From an uncultured Aquimarina sp. (lineage in GTDB: Bacteria > Bacteroidota > Bacteroidia > Flavobacteriales > Flavobacteriaceae), in contig CANMKX010000006.1 in NCBI GenBank assembly GCA_947498595.1, positions 1-64,000 of the forward strand: DNA of 64,000 bases. The letters are read 5' to 3'. Shown here piece after piece: positions 33 through 10,786 of the stretch; positions within the stretch are counted from its first letter, which is position 1, and each line of letters begins with the position of its first letter. The notes under the pieces are model-generated. The model had not been told where the DNA came from. It made no database searches and saw only the letters and a list, made by a program, of their open reading frames with translations. The position numbers were made by a program, and so were the translations under genes.

Positions 33-1067
33 TTACTGCTTAAAGTTAAAATTATTATTCTACTTTTTAACAGTTCGGTTTTATGGGGAGCTTACACTTA
101 TACTTGTATTTGTCTTATTGGGAAAAGAGAAAGTTCTTCTGTTAAATATGTGAAGAGTTTAAGTAGTAAGATTCAAAAGATAAAAAAATCAAGCTACATA
201 GATATTCCCTATTCAAATCTTGATGATTTTAATGGCTGGTATTTAATTAATAAAAAGGTTCAAAAAATTATTTCAAAAATTGAAAATTGTGGAACTTCTT
301 TAGGCGATAAATTTGAAATACGAAATGGCTTTGCTACCTTAAAAAACAAAATTTTTGTATTCAAACCTACAAAAGAAGATAACGAATTCTACTACTTATT
401 AAAAGAAGGTGTTGAATATAAAATTGAAAAAGGCATTTGTAAAGATGCTATTAAACCTAATATTTTAAAAACAGAATTAGAACTTGAGGGAAAAACTGAA
501 AAATTAATTTTTCCGTATACTATAGAACAAAATAAAACAGAGTTATTTAAATCAGAAGAAAAGATACTTAAAACACTAACTGAATCTGAATTTAAAACAA
601 ACTATCCATTTACCTTTAAATATTTACTAGCTAACAGAAAAATATTAGCATTAAGAGACAAAGGAAATAGGAAATATGACCAATGGTTTGCGTTTGGTAG
701 AAATCAAGCACTGACTTTAGGTGGATTTAAATTACTCTTTCCATACATTACAAATAAACCATGCTTTGTGCTTACAGAAAACACTGATTTGTTGTTTTAT
801 AATGGTTATGCTATATTGTCGGAATCCATTGAAGAACTTCTTATTTTACAAAAGATATTAATGTCAAAAGTATTTTGGTATTATATTGAAAAAACCAGTA
901 AGCCATATGCTGGTAATTATTTTTCTGTGGCTAAAAATTATATAAAAAATTTTGGTATATGTGATTTATCAGAGGATGAGAAAACAACATTAATTAATTT
1001 AACAGATCGAGATAAAATAAATGATTTTTTAATAATTAAATACAATGTTGTAGGGATTAGCAATTAA
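33..1067 (+). CDS. Type IIG (Eco57I-like) restriction-modification protein, C-terminal remnant
   Basis: This is the C-terminal part of a bifunctional restriction/methyltransferase protein of the Eco57I/TaqI-like class. The open frame begins after a stop at 30-32. Codons before the GTG at 150 already read as protein, with a GAYTYTCICLIGK-like stretch at about 87-125 that matches the conserved late methyltransferase motif of this class. The GTG at 150 is therefore not a true start. The rest (FEIRNGFATLKNKIF, then YNGYAIL) resembles the target-recognition domain. Frame 1 of bases 1-45 reads WTKFALSHNYC, which resembles the region normally just upstream, so a frameshift near 40-60 is likely. Catalytic DPPY and PD-(D/E)XK motifs are absent, so it is probably inactive. 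Family call is fairly secure; pseudogene status is inferred. Confidence 0.6.
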   Translation, partial: LLLKVKIIILLFNSSVLWGAYTYTCICLIGKRESSSVKYVKSLSSKIQKIKKSSYIDIPYSNLDDFNGWYLINKKVQKIISKIENCGTSLGDKFEIRNGFATLKNKIFVFKPTKEDNEFYYLLKEGVEYKIEKGICKDAIKPNILKTELELEGKTEKLIFPYTIEQNKTELFKSEEKILKTLTESEFKTNYPFTFKYLLANRKILALRDKGNRKYDQWFAFGRNQALTLGGFKLLFPYITNKPCFVLTENTDLLFYNGYAILSESIEELLILQKILMSKVFWYYIEKTSKPYAGNYFSVAKNYIKNFGICDLSEDEKTTLINLTDRDKINDFLIIKYNVVGISN

Positions 1068-3511: not shown

Positions 3512-4915
<1,404 letters not shown>

Positions 4916-5084: not shown

Positions 5085-6185
5085 CTATTTGCGTACAGCA
5101 AAAATATCTTTAAGTTGTTGTACCATTCCACCTTGACCGTTTACAGTAATTTCACCAATCTTATCTGCAATTTTTTCCACAAATTCCATTTCTTTAAGTT
5201 GGTATAACATGGTGTTATCTTCCATTAATCTAGCTGTATTGAGTAGGCTTCGTGTAGCAGCAGTTTCTTCTCTACGAGTAATACTATTAGCTTGGGCACG
5301 TTTTTGAGCCACCAAAACATGATTCATAATTTCTTTCATCTCTCCTGGTAGTATTATATCTCTAATACCGCAGTTTATAATTTTGATACCGAGAGAAGTT
5401 GCTTGTGCTTTTACCAAATCAAGGATTATAGAAGCAATATTTTCTTTTTGTTCTAATAATTGATCTAATGTATACATACCGATATAAGTTCGTAAAGCGA
5501 GTTGCATTAGAATATACAGTTGTTTTTCAAAACCATTATTTTCTAGCATTGCTTTTTTAATATCGATAATTTTATACTGTGTGTAAAAATTGATTCGGAT
5601 ACCAGCTTTATCTTTAGTTAATAACTCTTGTCCCGAAATCTCTAATTGTAATTGTCTTAAATCTGCGGGAATAACTTTAATAGTTGTTTCATTTTTCCAG
5701 AAACGATATACACCACTATCTAGAATTTTGATATACGTATCATCAACTATTAATAATGCCTTTTCATATGTTGCAACTTCATACGATCTTATATAACCAC
5801 TTAATAGAGGAGATATAAAGAGATTCTTACTTATTTTTTCTGTAATGTATATTTTACTTAAATCGACTCTTATAAAAGTTAGATTTAGTACGTTTTTCCA
5901 ATATGCATGCCTTCCTGGATTTAGTACAGTTCTTAGATTATTGTTTTCATATACCAAAATGAGTTCATGATCTTTTACATCAATAATAGTTAACATTGCA
6001 GCTAATACATTGTCTTTAAGTAAAAAATCAAGAGATATAGGCGCATAGAAAGGTTGAGAAAGTTCAAAATTAGAAACCTTTTCTTTGAAACCAATCCAAT
6101 GCTTTCCTGCGGTAATTACGCGTTGATAATCACCATTCTTGAAAACCAAACCAACTTTATCTTCATTAATAAATACTTTTCTCAT
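5085..6185 (-). CDS. Slipin (SPFH/band-7 family protein)
   Basis: 366-aa stomatin-like protein. Repeated N-terminal segments (RKVFINEDKVGLVFKNG, then DHELILVYENN, then YEKALLIVDDTY) lead into the SPFH core, roughly residues 130-270. An Ala/Arg-rich helical stretch follows (VAQKRAQANSITRREETAATRS, about 290-312), which in this family drives oligomerisation. I see no transmembrane segment. SPFH proteins scaffold membrane-associated complexes; the specific role of bacterial slipins is not settled. It stands directly upstream of rtcB on the same strand, an association that comparative work on RNA-repair loci has noted, and directly downstream of the tRNA-like cluster. A role in organising the RNA-repair machinery is inference. 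Confidence 0.85.
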   Translation of the reverse strand: MRKVFINEDKVGLVFKNGDYQRVITAGKHWIGFKEKVSNFELSQPFYAPISLDFLLKDNVLAAMLTIIDVKDHELILVYENNNLRTVLNPGRHAYWKNVLNLTFIRVDLSKIYITEKISKNLFISPLLSGYIRSYEVATYEKALLIVDDTYIKILDSGVYRFWKNETTIKVIPADLRQLQLEISGQELLTKDKAGIRINFYTQYKIIDIKKAMLENNGFEKQLYILMQLALRTYIGMYTLDQLLEQKENIASIILDLVKAQATSLGIKIINCGIRDIILPGEMKEIMNHVLVAQKRAQANSITRREETAATRSLLNTARLMEDNTMLYQLKEMEFVEKIADKIGEITVNGQGGMVQQLKDIFAVRK

Positions 6186-6346: not shown

Positions 6347-6431
6347 GTATTATTCATGATAAAAAAAGAGACTACAATAGATCACTTTTAAACTACGGGA
6401 GCCATGAGATTATAAAACTAGTATTGTAACA

Positions 6432-6478
6432 AATCAAAATAAGAAGTACTGTTTTATGAGTACTATTATAATTTGATA
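6432..6478. other. Imperfect long inverted repeat
   Basis: ATCAAA...TTTGAT arms with an internal AGTACT/AGTACT pairing make an imperfect hairpin of about 18 bp around an 8-nt loop. There is no T-run. It sits between the slipin gene and the tRNA-like cluster, so it may be a processing or leader structure. Function unknown. Confidence 0.35.
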
Positions 6479-6566
6479 TTGTTTATAGCAATTATATAAT
6501 AAATCAAGAAACCAAGGTGTTTACAAAGCGTATTGATTTAACAACAGACCTATTGTATCCTTTTCC

Positions 6567-6593
6567 TGATGAGGCAGTATCAGGTACTGATAT
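6567..6593 (-). other. Mutually exclusive hairpins downstream of the tRNA-like cluster
   Basis: On the minus strand the same CTGAT segment can pair in two ways: TATCAG-TAC-CTGATA, or CCTGAT-8 nt-ATCAGG. Each stem is 6 bp and perfect. They cannot form together, which is the layout of a switch or attenuator. It lies between the tRNA-like cluster and slipin. Confidence 0.3.
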
Positions 6594-6622
6594 CTTTTTA
6601 AATAAGAGATATAACTTATTGT

Positions 6623-6646
6623 AAAAAAGGATTTTGAACCCATTTT
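6623..6646 (-). terminator. Terminator-like hairpin with T-loop-like sequence after the permuted tRNAs
   Basis: On the minus strand an AAAATGG/CCTTTTTT pairing (one T-T mismatch) closes around GTTCAAAAT and runs into six T. It could terminate the tRNA-like transcript. The loop also resembles a degenerate T arm, so it might instead be a decayed further tRNA half. Confidence 0.4.
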
Positions 6647-6731
6647 CAAGCTAGATTTTCAGTCTAGTGCGTCTGCCAATTTCGCCATTCCAAATAATTT
6701 GGAAGTAGGATTCGAACCTACAGGTTGAAAA
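6643..6731 (-). tRNA. Circularly permuted tRNA-like gene, tRNA-Leu body with GAA anticodon
   Basis: Read on the minus strand, the 3' half comes first. It holds a variable-arm strand (6725-6731), T arm GTAGG-TTCGAAT-CCTAC (6705-6721) and 3' acceptor TTCCAAA (6698-6704). A TTA linker (6695-6697) follows. Then comes the 5' half: acceptor TTTGGAA (6688-6694), TG, D arm GCG...CGC with A14 and GG (6669-6685), anticodon arm CTAGA-CTGAAAA-TCTAG (6651-6667), and variable-arm strand TTGAAAA (6643-6649). The acceptor pairs 7/7 and the variable arm 7/7 (TTGAAAA/TTTTCAA). Mature size would be about 86 nt, right for class II. The D arm is typical of tRNA-Leu, but the anticodon reads GAA (Phe). In linear order no acceptor stem forms. 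The break falls at the tip of the variable arm. Confidence 0.7.
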
Positions 6732-6804
6732 AATCTATAGTCCTTCCAGTTAGACCATATAAGAATACTCTTATAATGGGATTCGAACCCATACCTATAG
6801 AAAC
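6728..6804 (-). tRNA. Circularly permuted tRNA-like gene, Gln-like
   Basis: On the minus strand the 3' half comes first: anticodon 3' strand TCTAT (6797-6801), AGGT, T arm ATGGG-TTCGAAT-CCCAT (6776-6792), and acceptor TATAAGA (6769-6775). A GTAT linker (6765-6768) follows. Then comes the 5' half: acceptor TCTTATA (6758-6764), TG, D arm GTC...GAC with GG in the loop (6740-6755), T26, anticodon 5' strand ATAGA (6734-6738), and six T (6728-6733). The acceptor pairs 7/7 and the anticodon stem 5/5. Joining at the loop gives anticodon TTG (Gln) if G6804 is kept, or TTT if joined within the T-run. The U1-A72 pair and the next base G (as discriminator) favour Gln. In linear order neither stem pairs. 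Confidence 0.72.
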
Positions 6805-6807
6805 AAA

Positions 6808-6827
6808 CTGATTATATGGTTAATCAG
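6808..6827 (-). other. Hairpin directly 5' of the Gln-like 3' half
   Basis: Perfect 7-bp stem CTGATTA/TAATCAG with a 6-nt loop (ACCATA on the minus strand), a few nt upstream of the first permuted half. It overlaps the segment 6804-6810 that can alternatively pair with 6721-6727. It could control which fold forms. Confidence 0.5.
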
Positions 6828-6835
6828 AAACCCTT

Positions 6836-6922
6836 ACAATCAAGTTGAATATAGTTTTCGATACGTTAAGCAGAAAAATATACAATAGTGCTATACAGAA
6901 ACACATAACAAGACTTGATTGT
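6836..6922 (-). ncRNA. Stem-closed RNA domain following tRNA-Tyr
   Basis: A perfect 10-bp pairing (6913-6922 with 6836-6845; ACAATCAAGT/ACTTGATTGT) closes a 67-nt domain that starts 2-3 nt after the tRNA-Tyr 3' end. An inner TATAG/CTATA pairing is possible. It is either a structured trailer/spacer of the tRNA transcript or a separate small RNA. No tRNA arms were recognised inside it. Confidence 0.45.
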
Positions 6923-6924
6923 TG

Positions 6925-7007
6925 TGAACGTAGTAGGACTCGAACCTACAAGCTCCGTAGAGGCCAGATTTACAGTCTGGTGAGCCAACCAATTGCTCAA
7001 TACGTTC
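6925..7007 (-). tRNA. tRNA-Tyr (GUA)
   Basis: Canonical linear class II tRNA. The acceptor GAACGTA/TACGTTC pairs 7/7. The D arm is GAGC...GCTC with GG in the loop, and the anticodon arm CCAGA-CTGTAAA-TCTGG carries GTA. A short variable arm has a CTC-TACG-GAG stem, and the T arm is GTAGG-TTCGAGT-CCTAC. The discriminator is A and CCA is not encoded. It shows that the minus strand of this region is a tRNA transcription unit. It lies apart from any tuf or translation operon, so it may be a supernumerary copy. A TAnnTTTG-like element (7104-7111) lies upstream. Confidence 0.85.
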
Positions 7008-7974: not shown

Positions 7975-8020
7975 ATACCAGATGAATATTAAAACAATGA
8001 TTTTAATATTCATCCGGTAT
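7975..8020 (-). other. 20-bp inverted repeat 3' of the class II tRNA-like gene
   Basis: Arms 7975-7994 and 8001-8020 pair at 19 of 20 positions around a 6-nt loop. There is no T-run on either side, so this is not a classical terminator. It lies in the 3' flank of the tRNA-like gene and may be a processing signal or the scar of a small mobile element. Confidence 0.5.
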
Positions 8021-8043: not shown

Positions 8044-8052
8044 AATTGATTG

Positions 8053-8139
8053 TGGAGAACAAAGGAATCGAACCTTTACTGTTGTTATACAGACCCGTTT
8101 AGTGAACAAGTACAGCAAACCAATAGCTGTCTATTCTCC
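8053..8139 (-). tRNA. Divergent class II tRNA-like gene
   Basis: Linear fold: acceptor GGAGAAT/GTTCTCC (one G-U pair), D arm ACAGC...GCTGT with GG in the loop, and anticodon arm CTTGT-TCACTAA-ACGGG with two G-U pairs. The variable arm is long, with a CTGT/ACAG stem. The T arm is AAAGG-TTCGATT-CCTTT, followed by discriminator A. CCA is not encoded. Position 33 is C instead of the near-universal U, and the anticodon would be ACT, rare in bacteria. The length and arms say tRNA, but the loop says altered function. A class II body with anticodon ACT would nominally be Ser-like. It could be a decoy, a pseudo-tRNA or a regulatory tRNA-like RNA. Confidence 0.6.
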
Positions 8140-9064: not shown

Positions 9065-10786
9065 ATGGCAGTAAACAAAAATGCATTAATTAGATATAAA
9101 ACAATAGATAAGTGTTTACAGAATAGTTATAGAAAATGGACGCTGCAAGATTTGATAGAAGCCTGTTCTGATGCTTTATACGAATACGAAGGAAAAGATA
9201 CCTATGTAAGTAAACGTACCGTGCAATTGGATATCCAAATGATGCGAAGTGATAAATTAGGTTATAATGCACCTATATCAGTATACGAACGTAAGTACTA
9301 TAAATATGAGAATGCAGATTATAGTATTACCAGCATACCTATTTCAGACCAAGACCTTGAACAATTGTCTGATGCCGTTTCATTTTTGAAACAATTTAAA
9401 GGATTCTCTCACTTTAGAGAGTTAGAAGGAATGGTTCAAAAACTAGAGGATCATGTATATTCTCAAAAAACTAATGAAACACCTATTATTGATTTTGAAA
9501 AGAATGAAAATCTAAAAGGAATCGATTTTTTGGATCAATTGTATAAATCTATTTTGAATAAAAGAGCAATTGAAATTACATATAAATCGTTTAAAGCAAG
9601 AGAAGAAAATACATTTGTTTTTCATCCTTATTTGTTAAAAGAATACAGAAATAGATGGTTTGTTATCGGGGTAAAGAAGAAACGAGAAGGGATTTTAAAT
9701 TTAGCATTGGATAGAATTATATCAATTACTATAAGCGAAGAAAATTATAAAGCCAATACAGAATATGATTTTACAACGTATTATAAAAATGCAATAGGAG
9801 TTTCTGTAAGCCCTACATTACCTACAGAAAAAGTGGTTTTATATATAAAACATGCGCATGCTCCTTATATTTTAACCAAACCATTTCACCCAAGCCAAGA
9901 ATTAATAAGTAAAGATAATTATGGTGTAACAATATCCTTAGACATTCAACATAATTTTGAATTAGAAAAAGAAATATTAGGATTAGGAGAAAATATTAAG
10001 GTGATTAGCCCCCCGAGATTAAGACGAAATATTATTGATAGAATTCAAGAAACGTTAGATACTTACGATACAGAAATTACGGAAGCAGGATTAAAAACAG
10101 CCAAAAGTCAATTAGCATACAAAGGTTTTTCGATATTAAATTATGTATACACAAAGCGAGAAATTAAAAGGATAAAAAAAGCATTGGATCAGTATTTTAA
10201 AGAAGTAGGGTATGGAGTACGAACAATATTAAAAAAAGTACCGAAATTAAAATCTTTATTATTGAATAATAATTTAAATAAGATTTTACAGGAATTAGAT
10301 CACAATGTGGTGTTAACTAAAGCTATTTATTTTGATAAGCCTGCTAAGAGTAACTGGTATGTAACATGGCATCAAGATGTTCCTATTAATGTATCTGAAA
10401 AAATAGAAACGGAAGGATATACTTCTTGGACTTATAAAAAAGAAATCAATAGTGTGTGTCCTCCTGAAGAAATTCTTAAAAAAATAATCACGATTCGAAT
10501 ACATTTAGATGATACACACATTCGTAACGGAGCTTTAGAAGTGATTCCAGGATCTCATAAAAAACGTTTAAATGATCAAGAGATACAATTAATTACTAAA
10601 AATTCAATACCATATACATGTGATGTATTAGCAGGAGGAATACAATTAATGAAACCATTATTATTACATGCTTCATCAAAAGCTAAAAGTTATAAGAGAC
10701 GTAGAGTTTTACATTTAGAGTTCTCTTCGGAAGAGTTGCCAAATGGATTAACATGGTTAGAAAAAGAGGTATTAGAAACTATTTAA
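9065..10786 (+). CDS. WYL-domain transcriptional regulator fused to phytanoyl-CoA dioxygenase-like domain
   Basis: 573-aa fusion. Residues 1-65 form an HTH region (WTLQDLIEACSDALY, SKRTVQLDIQMMR). Residues 150-330 are a WYL domain (ITYKSFKARE at 171-180, FHPYLLKEYRNRWFVIGV at 186-203) followed by a WCX-like segment. Residues 350-573 resemble the PhyH Fe(II)/2-oxoglutarate dioxygenase fold: HQD at 436-438 as the HxD pair, HLDDTHIRNGALEVIPGSH at 480-498, distal His535 in LLLHAS, and an Arg cluster near 545. All three iron ligands are present, so it may be catalytic. WYL domains sense small ligands or nucleic acids in many defence and stress loci. There is no in-frame break between the parts. 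Which molecule is oxidised or sensed is unknown. Confidence 0.8.
   Translation: MAVNKNALIRYKTIDKCLQNSYRKWTLQDLIEACSDALYEYEGKDTYVSKRTVQLDIQMMRSDKLGYNAPISVYERKYYKYENADYSITSIPISDQDLEQLSDAVSFLKQFKGFSHFRELEGMVQKLEDHVYSQKTNETPIIDFEKNENLKGIDFLDQLYKSILNKRAIEITYKSFKAREENTFVFHPYLLKEYRNRWFVIGVKKKREGILNLALDRIISITISEENYKANTEYDFTTYYKNAIGVSVSPTLPTEKVVLYIKHAHAPYILTKPFHPSQELISKDNYGVTISLDIQHNFELEKEILGLGENIKVISPPRLRRNIIDRIQETLDTYDTEITEAGLKTAKSQLAYKGFSILNYVYTKREIKRIKKALDQYFKEVGYGVRTILKKVPKLKSLLLNNNLNKILQELDHNVVLTKAIYFDKPAKSNWYVTWHQDVPINVSEKIETEGYTSWTYKKEINSVCPPEEILKKIITIRIHLDDTHIRNGALEVIPGSHKKRLNDQEIQLITKNSIPYTCDVLAGGIQLMKPLLLHASSKAKSYKRRRVLHLEFSSEELPNGLTWLEKEVLETI

What the first reader, a model, noticed from the sequence alone, without database searches (positions are those of the whole stretch)
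6728..6804. Circularly permuted Gln-like tRNA gene in a bacterium
Seen: on the minus strand, T arm and 3' acceptor TATAAGA precede 5' acceptor TCTTATA by a 4-nt linker. Acceptor strands pair 7/7, and anticodon strands ATAGA/TCTAT 5/5. D loop GG, T loop TTCGAAT, U8-like T and a possible G73 are all in place. Linear readings give neither stem. Permuted tRNAs are established in some algae and one archaeon; I know of none confirmed in bacteria (permuted tmRNA exists). Maturation would need two cuts and a ligation.
Basis: partly seen in the sequence, partly recalled or inferred. Interest (0 to 1): 0.95.

Follow-up and report, generated by a model that had tools for sequence, protein, structure and literature searches.

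The report
Chain of circularly permuted tRNA mimics
In a marine bacterium, and at more than a hundred loci in its relatives, DNA beside a gene for a predicted membrane-scaffold protein spells out a likely RNA, about 560 letters long here, that is predicted to fold into a chain of inside-out (circularly permuted) tRNA look-alikes; it would probably serve as bait or scaffold in dealing with damaged tRNAs rather than as working tRNAs.

Summary
Window 6801-6734 (-) is one permuted tRNA-like module; a second follows at 6721-6651. Both lie in a conserved element (about 6921-6358) found at 116 or more other loci, nearly all Flavobacteriaceae among the 80 titles shown. Module 1 shows strong compensatory change (20 of 21 pairs changed on both sides, 93.5% of cells paired); so do anticodon-bearing modules (18 of 20). 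An SPFH/Band-7 gene lies downstream in 84 of 85 loci with enough sequence. In the window RtcB, RNA ligase and kinase-like genes follow, but RtcB is near in only 21 of 116 relatives. It is probably not a permuted tRNA gene: module 1 has no anticodon loop (the 'Gln UUG' is linker), and 72 of 107 first modules close the acceptor with a 3-4 nt loop. Best reading: a tRNA-mimic RNA partnered with SPFH, resembling bacterial Y RNA, and probably a multi-module form of the SPFH-linked 'tRNA-like molecule' that I recall from a 2016 paper not held here. Transcription and function are untested.

The parts
6358..6921 (-). Whole non-coding element (predicted RNA), ends set by homology
   Evidence: Aligns from the 5' domain to about 6358 with ten Aquimarina-group relatives; most of the last 260 bases are weakly conserved
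6808..6921 (-). 5' domain: closing helix, conserved GTGTTTCTGTATAGCACTATTGTAT hairpin region, and hairpin CTGATTA/TAATCAG (6827-6808)
   Evidence: Alignment A2 (40 rows); RNAalifold gives 30 pairs, 19 with two-sided changes
6734..6801 (-). Permuted tRNA-like module 1 (the finding)
   Evidence: model R1 match 58.1 bits at 6727-6805
6651..6721 (-). Permuted tRNA-like module 2 with a complete anticodon arm (GAA, 6660-6658); acceptor TTCCAAA-TTA-TTTGGAA
   Evidence: R1 match 50 bits at 6656-6735
6624..6646 (-). Stand-alone anticodon-like hairpin (loop TTCAAAA), imperfect stem
   Evidence: Aligns with ATGGACTCAAAATCCAT hairpins of relatives
6358..6620 (-). 3' domain, diverged
   Evidence: Alignment with relatives; fold not resolved
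5085..6185 (-). SPFH/Band-7 (slipin family) protein, 366 aa
   Evidence: PF01145, 100.1 bits; homologue downstream in 84 of 85 loci with at least 1800 nt held
3512..4894 (-). RtcB-family RNA ligase, 460 aa
   Evidence: PF01139, 110.8 bits
2215..2910 (-). RNA ligase (PF09414), 231 aa
   Evidence: 102.3 bits
1121..2257 (-). HD-type plus AAA_33 kinase-like protein, 378 aa (start codon uncertain)
   Evidence: PF13671 68.7 bits; PF01966 21.2 bits, below its cut-off of 22; HDIG 32 bits, cut-off 27.6
6924..7007 (-). tRNA-Tyr(GTA), ordinary linear tRNA ending right before the element

Best explanation
The feature is one of two circularly permuted tRNA-like modules in a conserved, probably transcribed non-coding element that sits between a tRNA gene and an SPFH-RtcB-RNA ligase gene set, and it likely works as a tRNA-mimic bait or scaffold for a predicted RNA-repair system rather than as a tRNA gene. 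Shown by sequence: the module order, the compensatory changes in the module helices, the linkage to the SPFH gene, and the window's gene content. Inferred: that the element is made as one RNA; that the modules fold into the tRNA elbow (D-loop GG, TTCRANN T loop) and bind tRNA-recognising proteins; that the closed acceptor keeps them from being charged; that the anticodon arms (U33 and purine 37 kept, 19 different anticodons) bait or sense tRNA-cutting toxins; and that RtcB and RNA ligase, where present, mend cut tRNAs on the SPFH platform. Module 1, whose anticodon stem is open at the loop, would be the join to the rest of the RNA, as the basal stem is in bacterial Y RNA.
For: Compensatory change in modules and in the 5' domain. 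SPFH gene downstream on the same strand in 105 of 116 loci, and in 84 of 85 with at least 1800 nt held; the exception, L165, has RtcB directly downstream. Reverse test: of 18 loci found only by near-full-length SPFH homology (L171 is the window itself), the module model hits 17 at E<1e-8 and one weakly (E 0.041); 0 of 12 distant SPFH loci. Window genes RtcB, RNA ligase, HD+AAA_33. tRNA genes within 1200 nt upstream on the same strand in 50 of 96 loci, control 0 of 72. Anticodon arms: T33 in 84 of 85, A/G37 in 84 of 85, 19 anticodons. Rotated modules called tRNA 85 of 85, swapped halves 29-41 of 81-85, as encoded 0 of 85. Sub-threshold YrlA (Y RNA) matches in 9 of 9 relatives scanned, best E 4.8e-8. 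T arm plus closed acceptor before SPFH genes of E. coli, Citrobacter and Subdoligranulum.
Against: No transcript is shown. RtcB (window's as query) is found in only 21 of 116 relatives within 8-kb loci, 9 of them downstream on the same strand, the RNA ligase in 0 and the HD+AAA_33 protein in 1. In 10 loci sampled from 27, the next two same-strand ORFs after SPFH include RtcB once; the others are mostly unrelated. So the repair link is shown for the window and a minority. In Photobacterium the modules before SPFH are linear, not permuted. Ro60-type (TROVE) genes are absent from 14 of 16 genomes. The window itself has no YrlA match at E<=5. In Salmonella the Y RNA is reported not to be cut by the anticodon nuclease (PMC7790460, passages), which argues against a cut-and-seal bait by analogy. 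The bait/scaffold step has no direct support.
Confidence: 0.55

Rival explanations
1. [quoted passage not shown]
For: Rotated anticodon-bearing modules are called tRNA in 85 of 85 cases; some linkers are 14 nt or longer (28 of 107 first modules); an RtcB gene lies nearby in the window; a 1-nt linker is known in an archaeal permuted tRNA gene (PMC3978253, passages).
Against: Module 1, present in nearly every element, has no anticodon loop; 41 of 107 first modules have GNRA-closed acceptors and 41 of 107 have stems of only 5 pairs; bacteria are not known to have the splicing endonuclease that algae and archaea use (recalled); ordinary tRNA genes abound in the genome (52 matches, two of them overlapping or nearby the element).
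Confidence: 0.07
2. A Y RNA (YrlA) proper: the RNA tethers a Ro60-type protein and PNPase for RNA decay.
For: Sub-threshold YrlA matches in 9 of 9 relatives scanned, best 48.2 bits, E 4.8e-8; the same T, acceptor and D arm order as in the described YrlA domain (PMC8394870, passages).
Against: Below the Rfam cut-off of 69 bits everywhere; TROVE genes in only 2 of 16 genomes and about 50 kb away there; many modules with full anticodon arms (85 of 222), which YrlA is not described as having in the passages seen.
Confidence: 0.1
3. Regulatory or sensor RNA: a leader of the SPFH gene that senses uncharged, cut or overabundant tRNAs through its tRNA-like domains and controls SPFH expression.
For: Position before the SPFH gene on the same strand in 105 of 116 loci, 463-971 nt from the 5' motif to the SPFH start.
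Against: Unlike tRNA-sensing leaders that pair with tRNA, it looks like tRNA itself; no terminator-like site was found near the 3' end in the window; the 5' end often abuts a tRNA gene (12 loci at 0-10 nt).
Confidence: 0.2
4. Chance pairing or decayed linear tandem tRNA genes.
For: Neighbouring tRNA genes can give a permuted-looking pattern, probably why R1 hits 323 of 395 genomes of the phylum; the tRNA-Ser-like gene at 8052-8139 looks decayed. Capture of such a junction may be how the modules arose.
Against: Compensatory change in all module helices; conserved 5' domain and SPFH linkage; short linkers; in the window no outer halves of a tandem pair are found.
Confidence: 0.03

Closest known systems
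SPFH/Band-7-associated 'novel tRNA-like molecule' of RNA-repair systems (Burroughs and Aravind 2016, Nucleic Acids Res 44:8525; abstract recalled; paper not held)
   Same: A tRNA-like non-coding RNA partnered with an SPFH/Band-7 gene
   Different: I could not see whether theirs is drawn as permuted, tandem or anticodon-bearing; those features are what the present calls show
Bacterial Y RNA, YrlA (RF02553; PMC8394870 and PMC7790460, passages)
   Same: tRNA-like domain of D, T and acceptor arms; genes sometimes next to RtcB
   Different: Not next to a Ro60 gene; score below the Rfam cut-off; two to four modules, many with anticodon arms; SPFH instead of Ro60
Circularly permuted tRNA genes of red and green algae and archaea (PMC3978253, passages; PMC3218864, listing only)
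   Same: 3' half, linker, 5' half order; full cloverleaf on rotation of anticodon-bearing modules
   Different: Closed short acceptors, module 1 without anticodon loop, embedded in a longer conserved element
Anabaena trn operon and TrcR regulon (PMC10272220, passages)
   Same: A tRNA array, RtcB and a slipin gene under one stress regulator
   Different: Genes lie at separate loci by their numbers; the passages seen mention no tRNA-mimic RNA
Pseudomonas aeruginosa SPFH protein PaFlo8 inside the rtc locus (PMC13086221, passage)
   Same: SPFH gene beside RtcA/RtcB/RtcR
   Different: No RNA is mentioned in that passage; its locus was not examined here

Membership tests
Circularly permuted tRNA gene | 3' half precedes 5' half, acceptor strands pair | tested here: met
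Circularly permuted tRNA gene | Complete cloverleaf with anticodon loop on rotation | tested here: inconclusive
   Met for module 2 and 84 other modules; not met for module 1, the reported one
Circularly permuted tRNA gene | Matured through a circular intermediate to a working tRNA | not testable with these tools
   Needs RNA sequencing; closed acceptors in 72 of 107 first modules make it unlikely
Circularly permuted tRNA gene | Bulge-helix-bulge splice site at the outer junction | not tested
   The motif belongs to algal and archaeal splicing (passages); not searched here
YrlA (bacterial Y RNA) | Rfam RF02553 cut-off (69 bits) | tested here: not met
   Best 48.2 bits in nine relatives; none in the window at E<=5
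YrlA (bacterial Y RNA) | Ro60/Rsr (TROVE) gene adjacent | tested here: not met
   2 of 16 genomes have TROVE, about 50 kb away
YrlA (bacterial Y RNA) | tRNA-like T, acceptor and D arms | tested here: met
SPFH-associated tRNA-like RNA (2016, recalled) | Encoded next to an SPFH/Band-7 gene | tested here: met
   84 of 85; 17 of 18 in the reverse test
SPFH-associated tRNA-like RNA (2016, recalled) | tRNA-like structure | tested here: met
SPFH-associated tRNA-like RNA (2016, recalled) | Part of an RNA-repair gene set | tested here: inconclusive
   Met in the window; RtcB near in 21 of 116 relatives and next to SPFH in 1 of 10 sampled loci
SPFH-associated tRNA-like RNA (2016, recalled) | Sequence or drawn structure of the published molecule | not testable with these tools
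   Paper not held
Permuted tmRNA | Rfam RF04321 cut-off (47 bits) | tested here: not met
   Best 24.2 bits
Linear tRNA genes | Detected as tRNA in the encoded order | tested here: not met
   0 of 85 anticodon-bearing modules as encoded; ARAGORN makes linear calls inside 6 of 116 relatives and one in the window, with mismatched acceptor pairs

The most novel reading that the evidence does not exclude
A dedicated bait RNA: Flavobacteriaceae chain inside-out tRNAs in one molecule, with acceptors closed so they cannot be charged and anticodon loops swapped freely from species to species, to draw off tRNA-cutting toxins and sense their attack; repair ligases such as the RtcB next door then mend the cut tRNAs and re-seal the bait on an SPFH membrane platform. 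To my knowledge it would be the first RNA built from serially permuted tRNAs.
Probability: 0.28. Interest if true: 0.9.

Novelty: new variant of a known kind. Interest (0 to 1): 0.72.

Why it matters
tRNA-finding programs look for linear tRNAs and miss or misread these modules (here as a tRNA-Phe), and Rfam has no family above threshold for the element apart from tRNA hits on parts of it. A minimal T-arm-plus-closed-acceptor form sits before the SPFH gene of one E. coli record, and that 291-bp stretch is in 1624 of 5426 complete E. coli genomes, with no annotation under it in the 15 rows shown. It gives a concrete, testable RNA partner for SPFH-linked systems, and a natural series of tRNA mimics with swapped anticodons for asking what tRNA-cutting toxins and repair ligases recognise.

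Tried and rejected
Chance pairing and decayed linear tRNAs: rejected by covariation and linkage. Gln identity: rejected. Phage origin: the 5' motif has 0 exact matches in viral contigs; the 451-base query matches 414 phage records, but the best rows cover only 15-18% of it, tRNA genes where annotated; the window's SPFH protein has one partial phage-record hit. Other Rfam families: apart from tRNA only sub-threshold matches. Y RNA membership: not met. Using R1 to count the RNA across Bacteroidota failed: 323 of 395 genomes hit, because the model also seems to fit junctions of neighbouring tRNA genes (inference from hit lengths of roughly 70-130 nt); I make no prevalence claim from it. A long-range helix closing the 3' domain: looked for by pattern, inconclusive. 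Promoter and terminator scan: 14 promoter-like sites against 12.0 expected, no terminator-like site near the element's 3' end on its strand.

Rows dropped. A1: 109 of 116 elements had an automatic module 1; 57 remained after removing near-duplicates; I left out four of these by hand (L075, L105, L115, L134: odd length or long automatic linker) and added the window, giving 54. A2: 8 of 47 listed rows left out by hand to shorten the call, plus the window, giving 40. A3: 77 of 85 modules (7 with linkers over 12 nt and the window's own left out), 43 after removing near-duplicates, plus the window, whose row was typed three bases short.

Literature: one search finds 45 papers holding 'permuted tRNA' (40 listed, titles and abstract starts seen); no listed title reports a bacterial permuted tRNA. 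Searches gave no title describing this RNA. The 2016 paper and the Y RNA structure papers are not held, so absence from print is not shown.

Full report
What was checked. On the minus strand the reported stretch reads: AC 3' strand TCTAT (6801-6797), T arm (6792-6776), acceptor 3' strand TATAAGA (6775-6769), linker GTAT, acceptor 5' strand TCTTATA (6764-6758), D arm (6755-6740), AC 5' strand ATAGA (6738-6734). Directly downstream is a second module of the same order: T arm 6721-6705, TTCCAAA-TTA-TTTGGAA, D arm, and a complete anticodon arm with GAA (6667-6651). ARAGORN and Rfam report this stretch as a linear tRNA-Phe (6694-6619, 32.6 bits); that call uses a stand-alone anticodon-like hairpin as T arm and has mismatched acceptor pairs.

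Relatives. A 451-base query has matches in 20 of 56 genomes searched besides the window's own row, mostly of the same genus, some of them only tRNA-Tyr or short spurious pieces. Aligned, these share a 5' domain and a first module, usually followed by further modules or anticodon-like hairpins; the 3' part was aligned only for the window and ten close relatives. T arms per element, by a strict search in 117 elements: 0 in 4, 1 in 5, 2 in 89, 3 in 18, 4 in 1.

Is it more than chance? Of 241 T arms in 117 elements, the 7-nt acceptor strand finds a 7/7 partner within 0-29 nt in 97 and 6/7 in 98; shuffled downstream sequence gives 7/7 in 3.1% and 6/7 in 28.0% of 4820 trials. Sixty of the 97 perfect acceptor pairs are distinct. 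Read linearly, the same 5' acceptor pairs with the next T arm's acceptor at 5/7 in 5 and 6/7 in 2 of 99 cases. On alignment A1 (54 rows, MAFFT on sequence only) the permuted structure has 93.5% of cells paired, 20 of 21 pairs with two-sided changes, 253 such cells and a covariation score of 0.619; 500 shuffles give means of 72.3%, 13.5, 68.2 and 0.214, and slid controls pair 40-52%. RNAalifold finds the T, acceptor (6 of 7 pairs) and D helices unprompted, but not the AC helix, which pairs in 85.9% of cells. Alignment A3 of anticodon-bearing modules (44 rows) gives 97.5%, 18 of 20 pairs (15 of 500 shuffles reach that count), 260 cells (0 of 500) and 0.807 against 0.228. Row choice: T stems had to pair 5/5 and acceptors at least 5/7 (109 of 116 elements passed), and A3 rows also had a 5/5 anticodon stem, so those percentages are partly by construction; the D and AC stems of A1 were not selected for.

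Gene neighbourhood. The next gene on the same strand in the window is an SPFH/Band-7 protein (5085-6185), followed by RtcB (3512-4894), a PF09414 RNA ligase (2215-2910) and an HD+AAA_33 protein (1121-2257). Among 116 relatives a homologue of that SPFH protein lies downstream on the same strand in 105, and in 84 of the 85 loci with at least 1800 nt held. The exception, L165, has RtcB directly downstream of the RNA instead. The reverse test does not depend on the RNA: of 295 genomes of the class, 33 match the SPFH protein at E<=1e-10. In the 18 loci with near-full-length homologues (L171-L188, L171 being the window) the module model R1 hits at E<1e-8 in 17 and weakly (0.041) in one; in 12 loci of distant partial SPFH matches it hits none. 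tRNA genes lie within 1200 nt upstream on the same strand in 50 of 96 loci, three or more in 25, and in 12 loci the nearest ends 0-10 nt before the RNA; a control window downstream has 0 of 72.

The repair genes are not constant neighbours. With the window's proteins as queries in the 8-kb loci, RtcB is found in 21 of 116 (9 downstream on the same strand), the RNA ligase in 0 and the HD+AAA_33 protein in 1. In 60 loci with more than 4000 nt downstream, 9 have RtcB on either side. In 10 loci sampled from 27, the first two same-strand ORFs after SPFH include RtcB once (L126), a 3'-5' exonuclease domain in three, and otherwise mostly unrelated or unassigned genes. So the constant partner is SPFH; the link to RNA repair rests on the window, a minority of relatives, and the literature on SPFH in rtc loci (PMC13086221, passage).

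Beyond Bacteroidota. SPFH homologues on records of Subdoligranulum (Bacillota), Citrobacter, E. coli and Photobacterium were examined, four of the nine records that cover at least 80% of the query. Before the gene, Subdoligranulum, Citrobacter and E. coli carry a T arm directly followed by a closed acceptor hairpin (TTACATCC/GGATGTAT, ATTTCAT/ATGAAAT and ATTCATT/AATGAAT), with R1 scores of 27.4, 16.1 and 20.1 bits (E 2.1e-6, 0.0077 and 0.00041). Photobacterium instead has two linear tRNA-like genes; its R1 hit of 40.9 bits is a hybrid of the two with broken acceptor pairs. The E. coli stretch occurs in 1624 of 5426 complete genomes, with no annotated feature under the match in the 15 rows shown. 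Upstream in E. coli and Citrobacter I read a sigma-54-like TGGCAC-N5-T(C/G)GCA box, and Citrobacter has rtcR divergently next to it (motif recognised from memory).

tRNA gene or mimic? Module 1 is joined to the rest of the element through its anticodon stem, so it has no anticodon loop. Of 107 first modules with a D arm, 63 close the acceptor with a tetraloop (41 GNRA), 9 with a 3-nt loop, and 41 stems have only 5 pairs. The window's own loops are GTAT and TTA on 7-pair stems. By contrast 85 of 222 modules have a complete anticodon arm, in 73 of 117 elements; these keep T33 (84 of 85) and A/G37 (84 of 85) while showing 19 anticodons, most often TTT, CAT, GAA and GTT. All 85 are called tRNA once rotated, against 29-41 of 81-85 with a swapped half and 0 of 85 as encoded. 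The modules thus look like tRNAs in what tRNA-binding proteins and tRNA-cutting enzymes would read, except that the acceptor end is usually closed. That is why I commit to a mimic, and among mimics to bait or scaffold; this last step is inference.

Known relatives. Bacterial Y RNA (YrlA) is the nearest described RNA by structure: a tRNA-like D, T and acceptor domain on a basal stem, bound by a Ro60-like protein and PNPase (PMC8394870, passages). In Salmonella it shares an operon with RtcB; its tRNA-like domain was not found to be cut by the anticodon nuclease and was suggested as a possible competitive inhibitor of it (PMC7790460, passages). Rfam's YrlA model matches all nine relatives scanned below its cut-off of 69 bits, five of them at 43.7-48.2 bits (E 4.8e-8 to 9.5e-7), but not the window at E<=5; TROVE proteins are missing from 14 of 16 genomes. 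So it resembles YrlA but is not filed as one. From memory, Burroughs and Aravind (2016) reported SPFH/Band-7 modules with a cognate 'novel tRNA-like molecule'; the paper is not held, and the passages I saw in papers that might cite it do not describe it further. If that molecule is the one seen here, the association is known and the new part is the chained, permuted, anticodon-bearing architecture and its covariation; hence 'new variant of a known kind'. An Anabaena regulon linking a stress-induced tRNA array, RtcB and a slipin gene fits the same theme (PMC10272220, passages).

Limits. Nothing here shows transcription. The RNA's ends in the window are set by homology. R1 is not specific without context (323 of 395 genomes), though in the window's genome its two matches at E<=1e-5 are exactly these two modules. 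The 3' domain fold is unresolved. How the modules arose is unknown; capture of the junction between two neighbouring copies of a tRNA gene would explain long-linker modules (inference).

Noticed in passing
window 8052-8139 (-): Diverged tRNA-Ser: ARAGORN calls anticodon ACT; the relative L033 has Ser(GCT) at the same kind of place. The loop TCACTAA has C33, so it looks like a decaying array tRNA.
   Followed up: partly
window 9065-10786 (+): One 573-aa ORF with WYL and WCX domains followed by a PhyH (dioxygenase) domain, an unusual fusion.
   Followed up: no
L204 4680-4990; L202 4680-4995: Minimal T-arm-plus-closed-acceptor element before the slipin gene of E. coli and Citrobacter, with a sigma-54-like box upstream; the E. 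coli stretch is in 1624 of 5426 complete E. coli genomes.
   Followed up: partly
L203 4665-4806: Photobacterium carries two linear, not permuted, tRNA-like genes before its SPFH gene, a possible other state of the same element.
   Followed up: partly
L033-L037, L039: Aquimarina-group genomes carry dense tRNA arrays (8-14 tRNA genes in about 3 kb); the window's tRNA-Tyr and tRNA-Ser look like remnants of such an array.
   Followed up: no
G008 C3:665948-666694; G017 C4:109646-110395: The only two TROVE (Ro60-type) proteins among 16 genomes lie about 50 kb from the tRNA-mimic RNA in both genomes.
   Followed up: no
L092, L099, L113: In three of ten sampled loci, all named Flavobacterium or Flavobacteriaceae, a 3'-5' exonuclease-domain gene (RNase_T) follows the SPFH gene.
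   Followed up: no
window 7976-8019: A 20-pair inverted repeat with a 4-nt loop between the tRNA-Ser-like gene and the next gene, scored as terminator-like.
   Followed up: no
window 150-1067 (+): ORF matching the C-terminal half of type II and IIG methyltransferase models.
   Followed up: no
L072 (Chitinophagales MAG): A member outside Flavobacteriaceae by its title, with a different closing helix and module; the contig could be misbinned.
   Followed up: no
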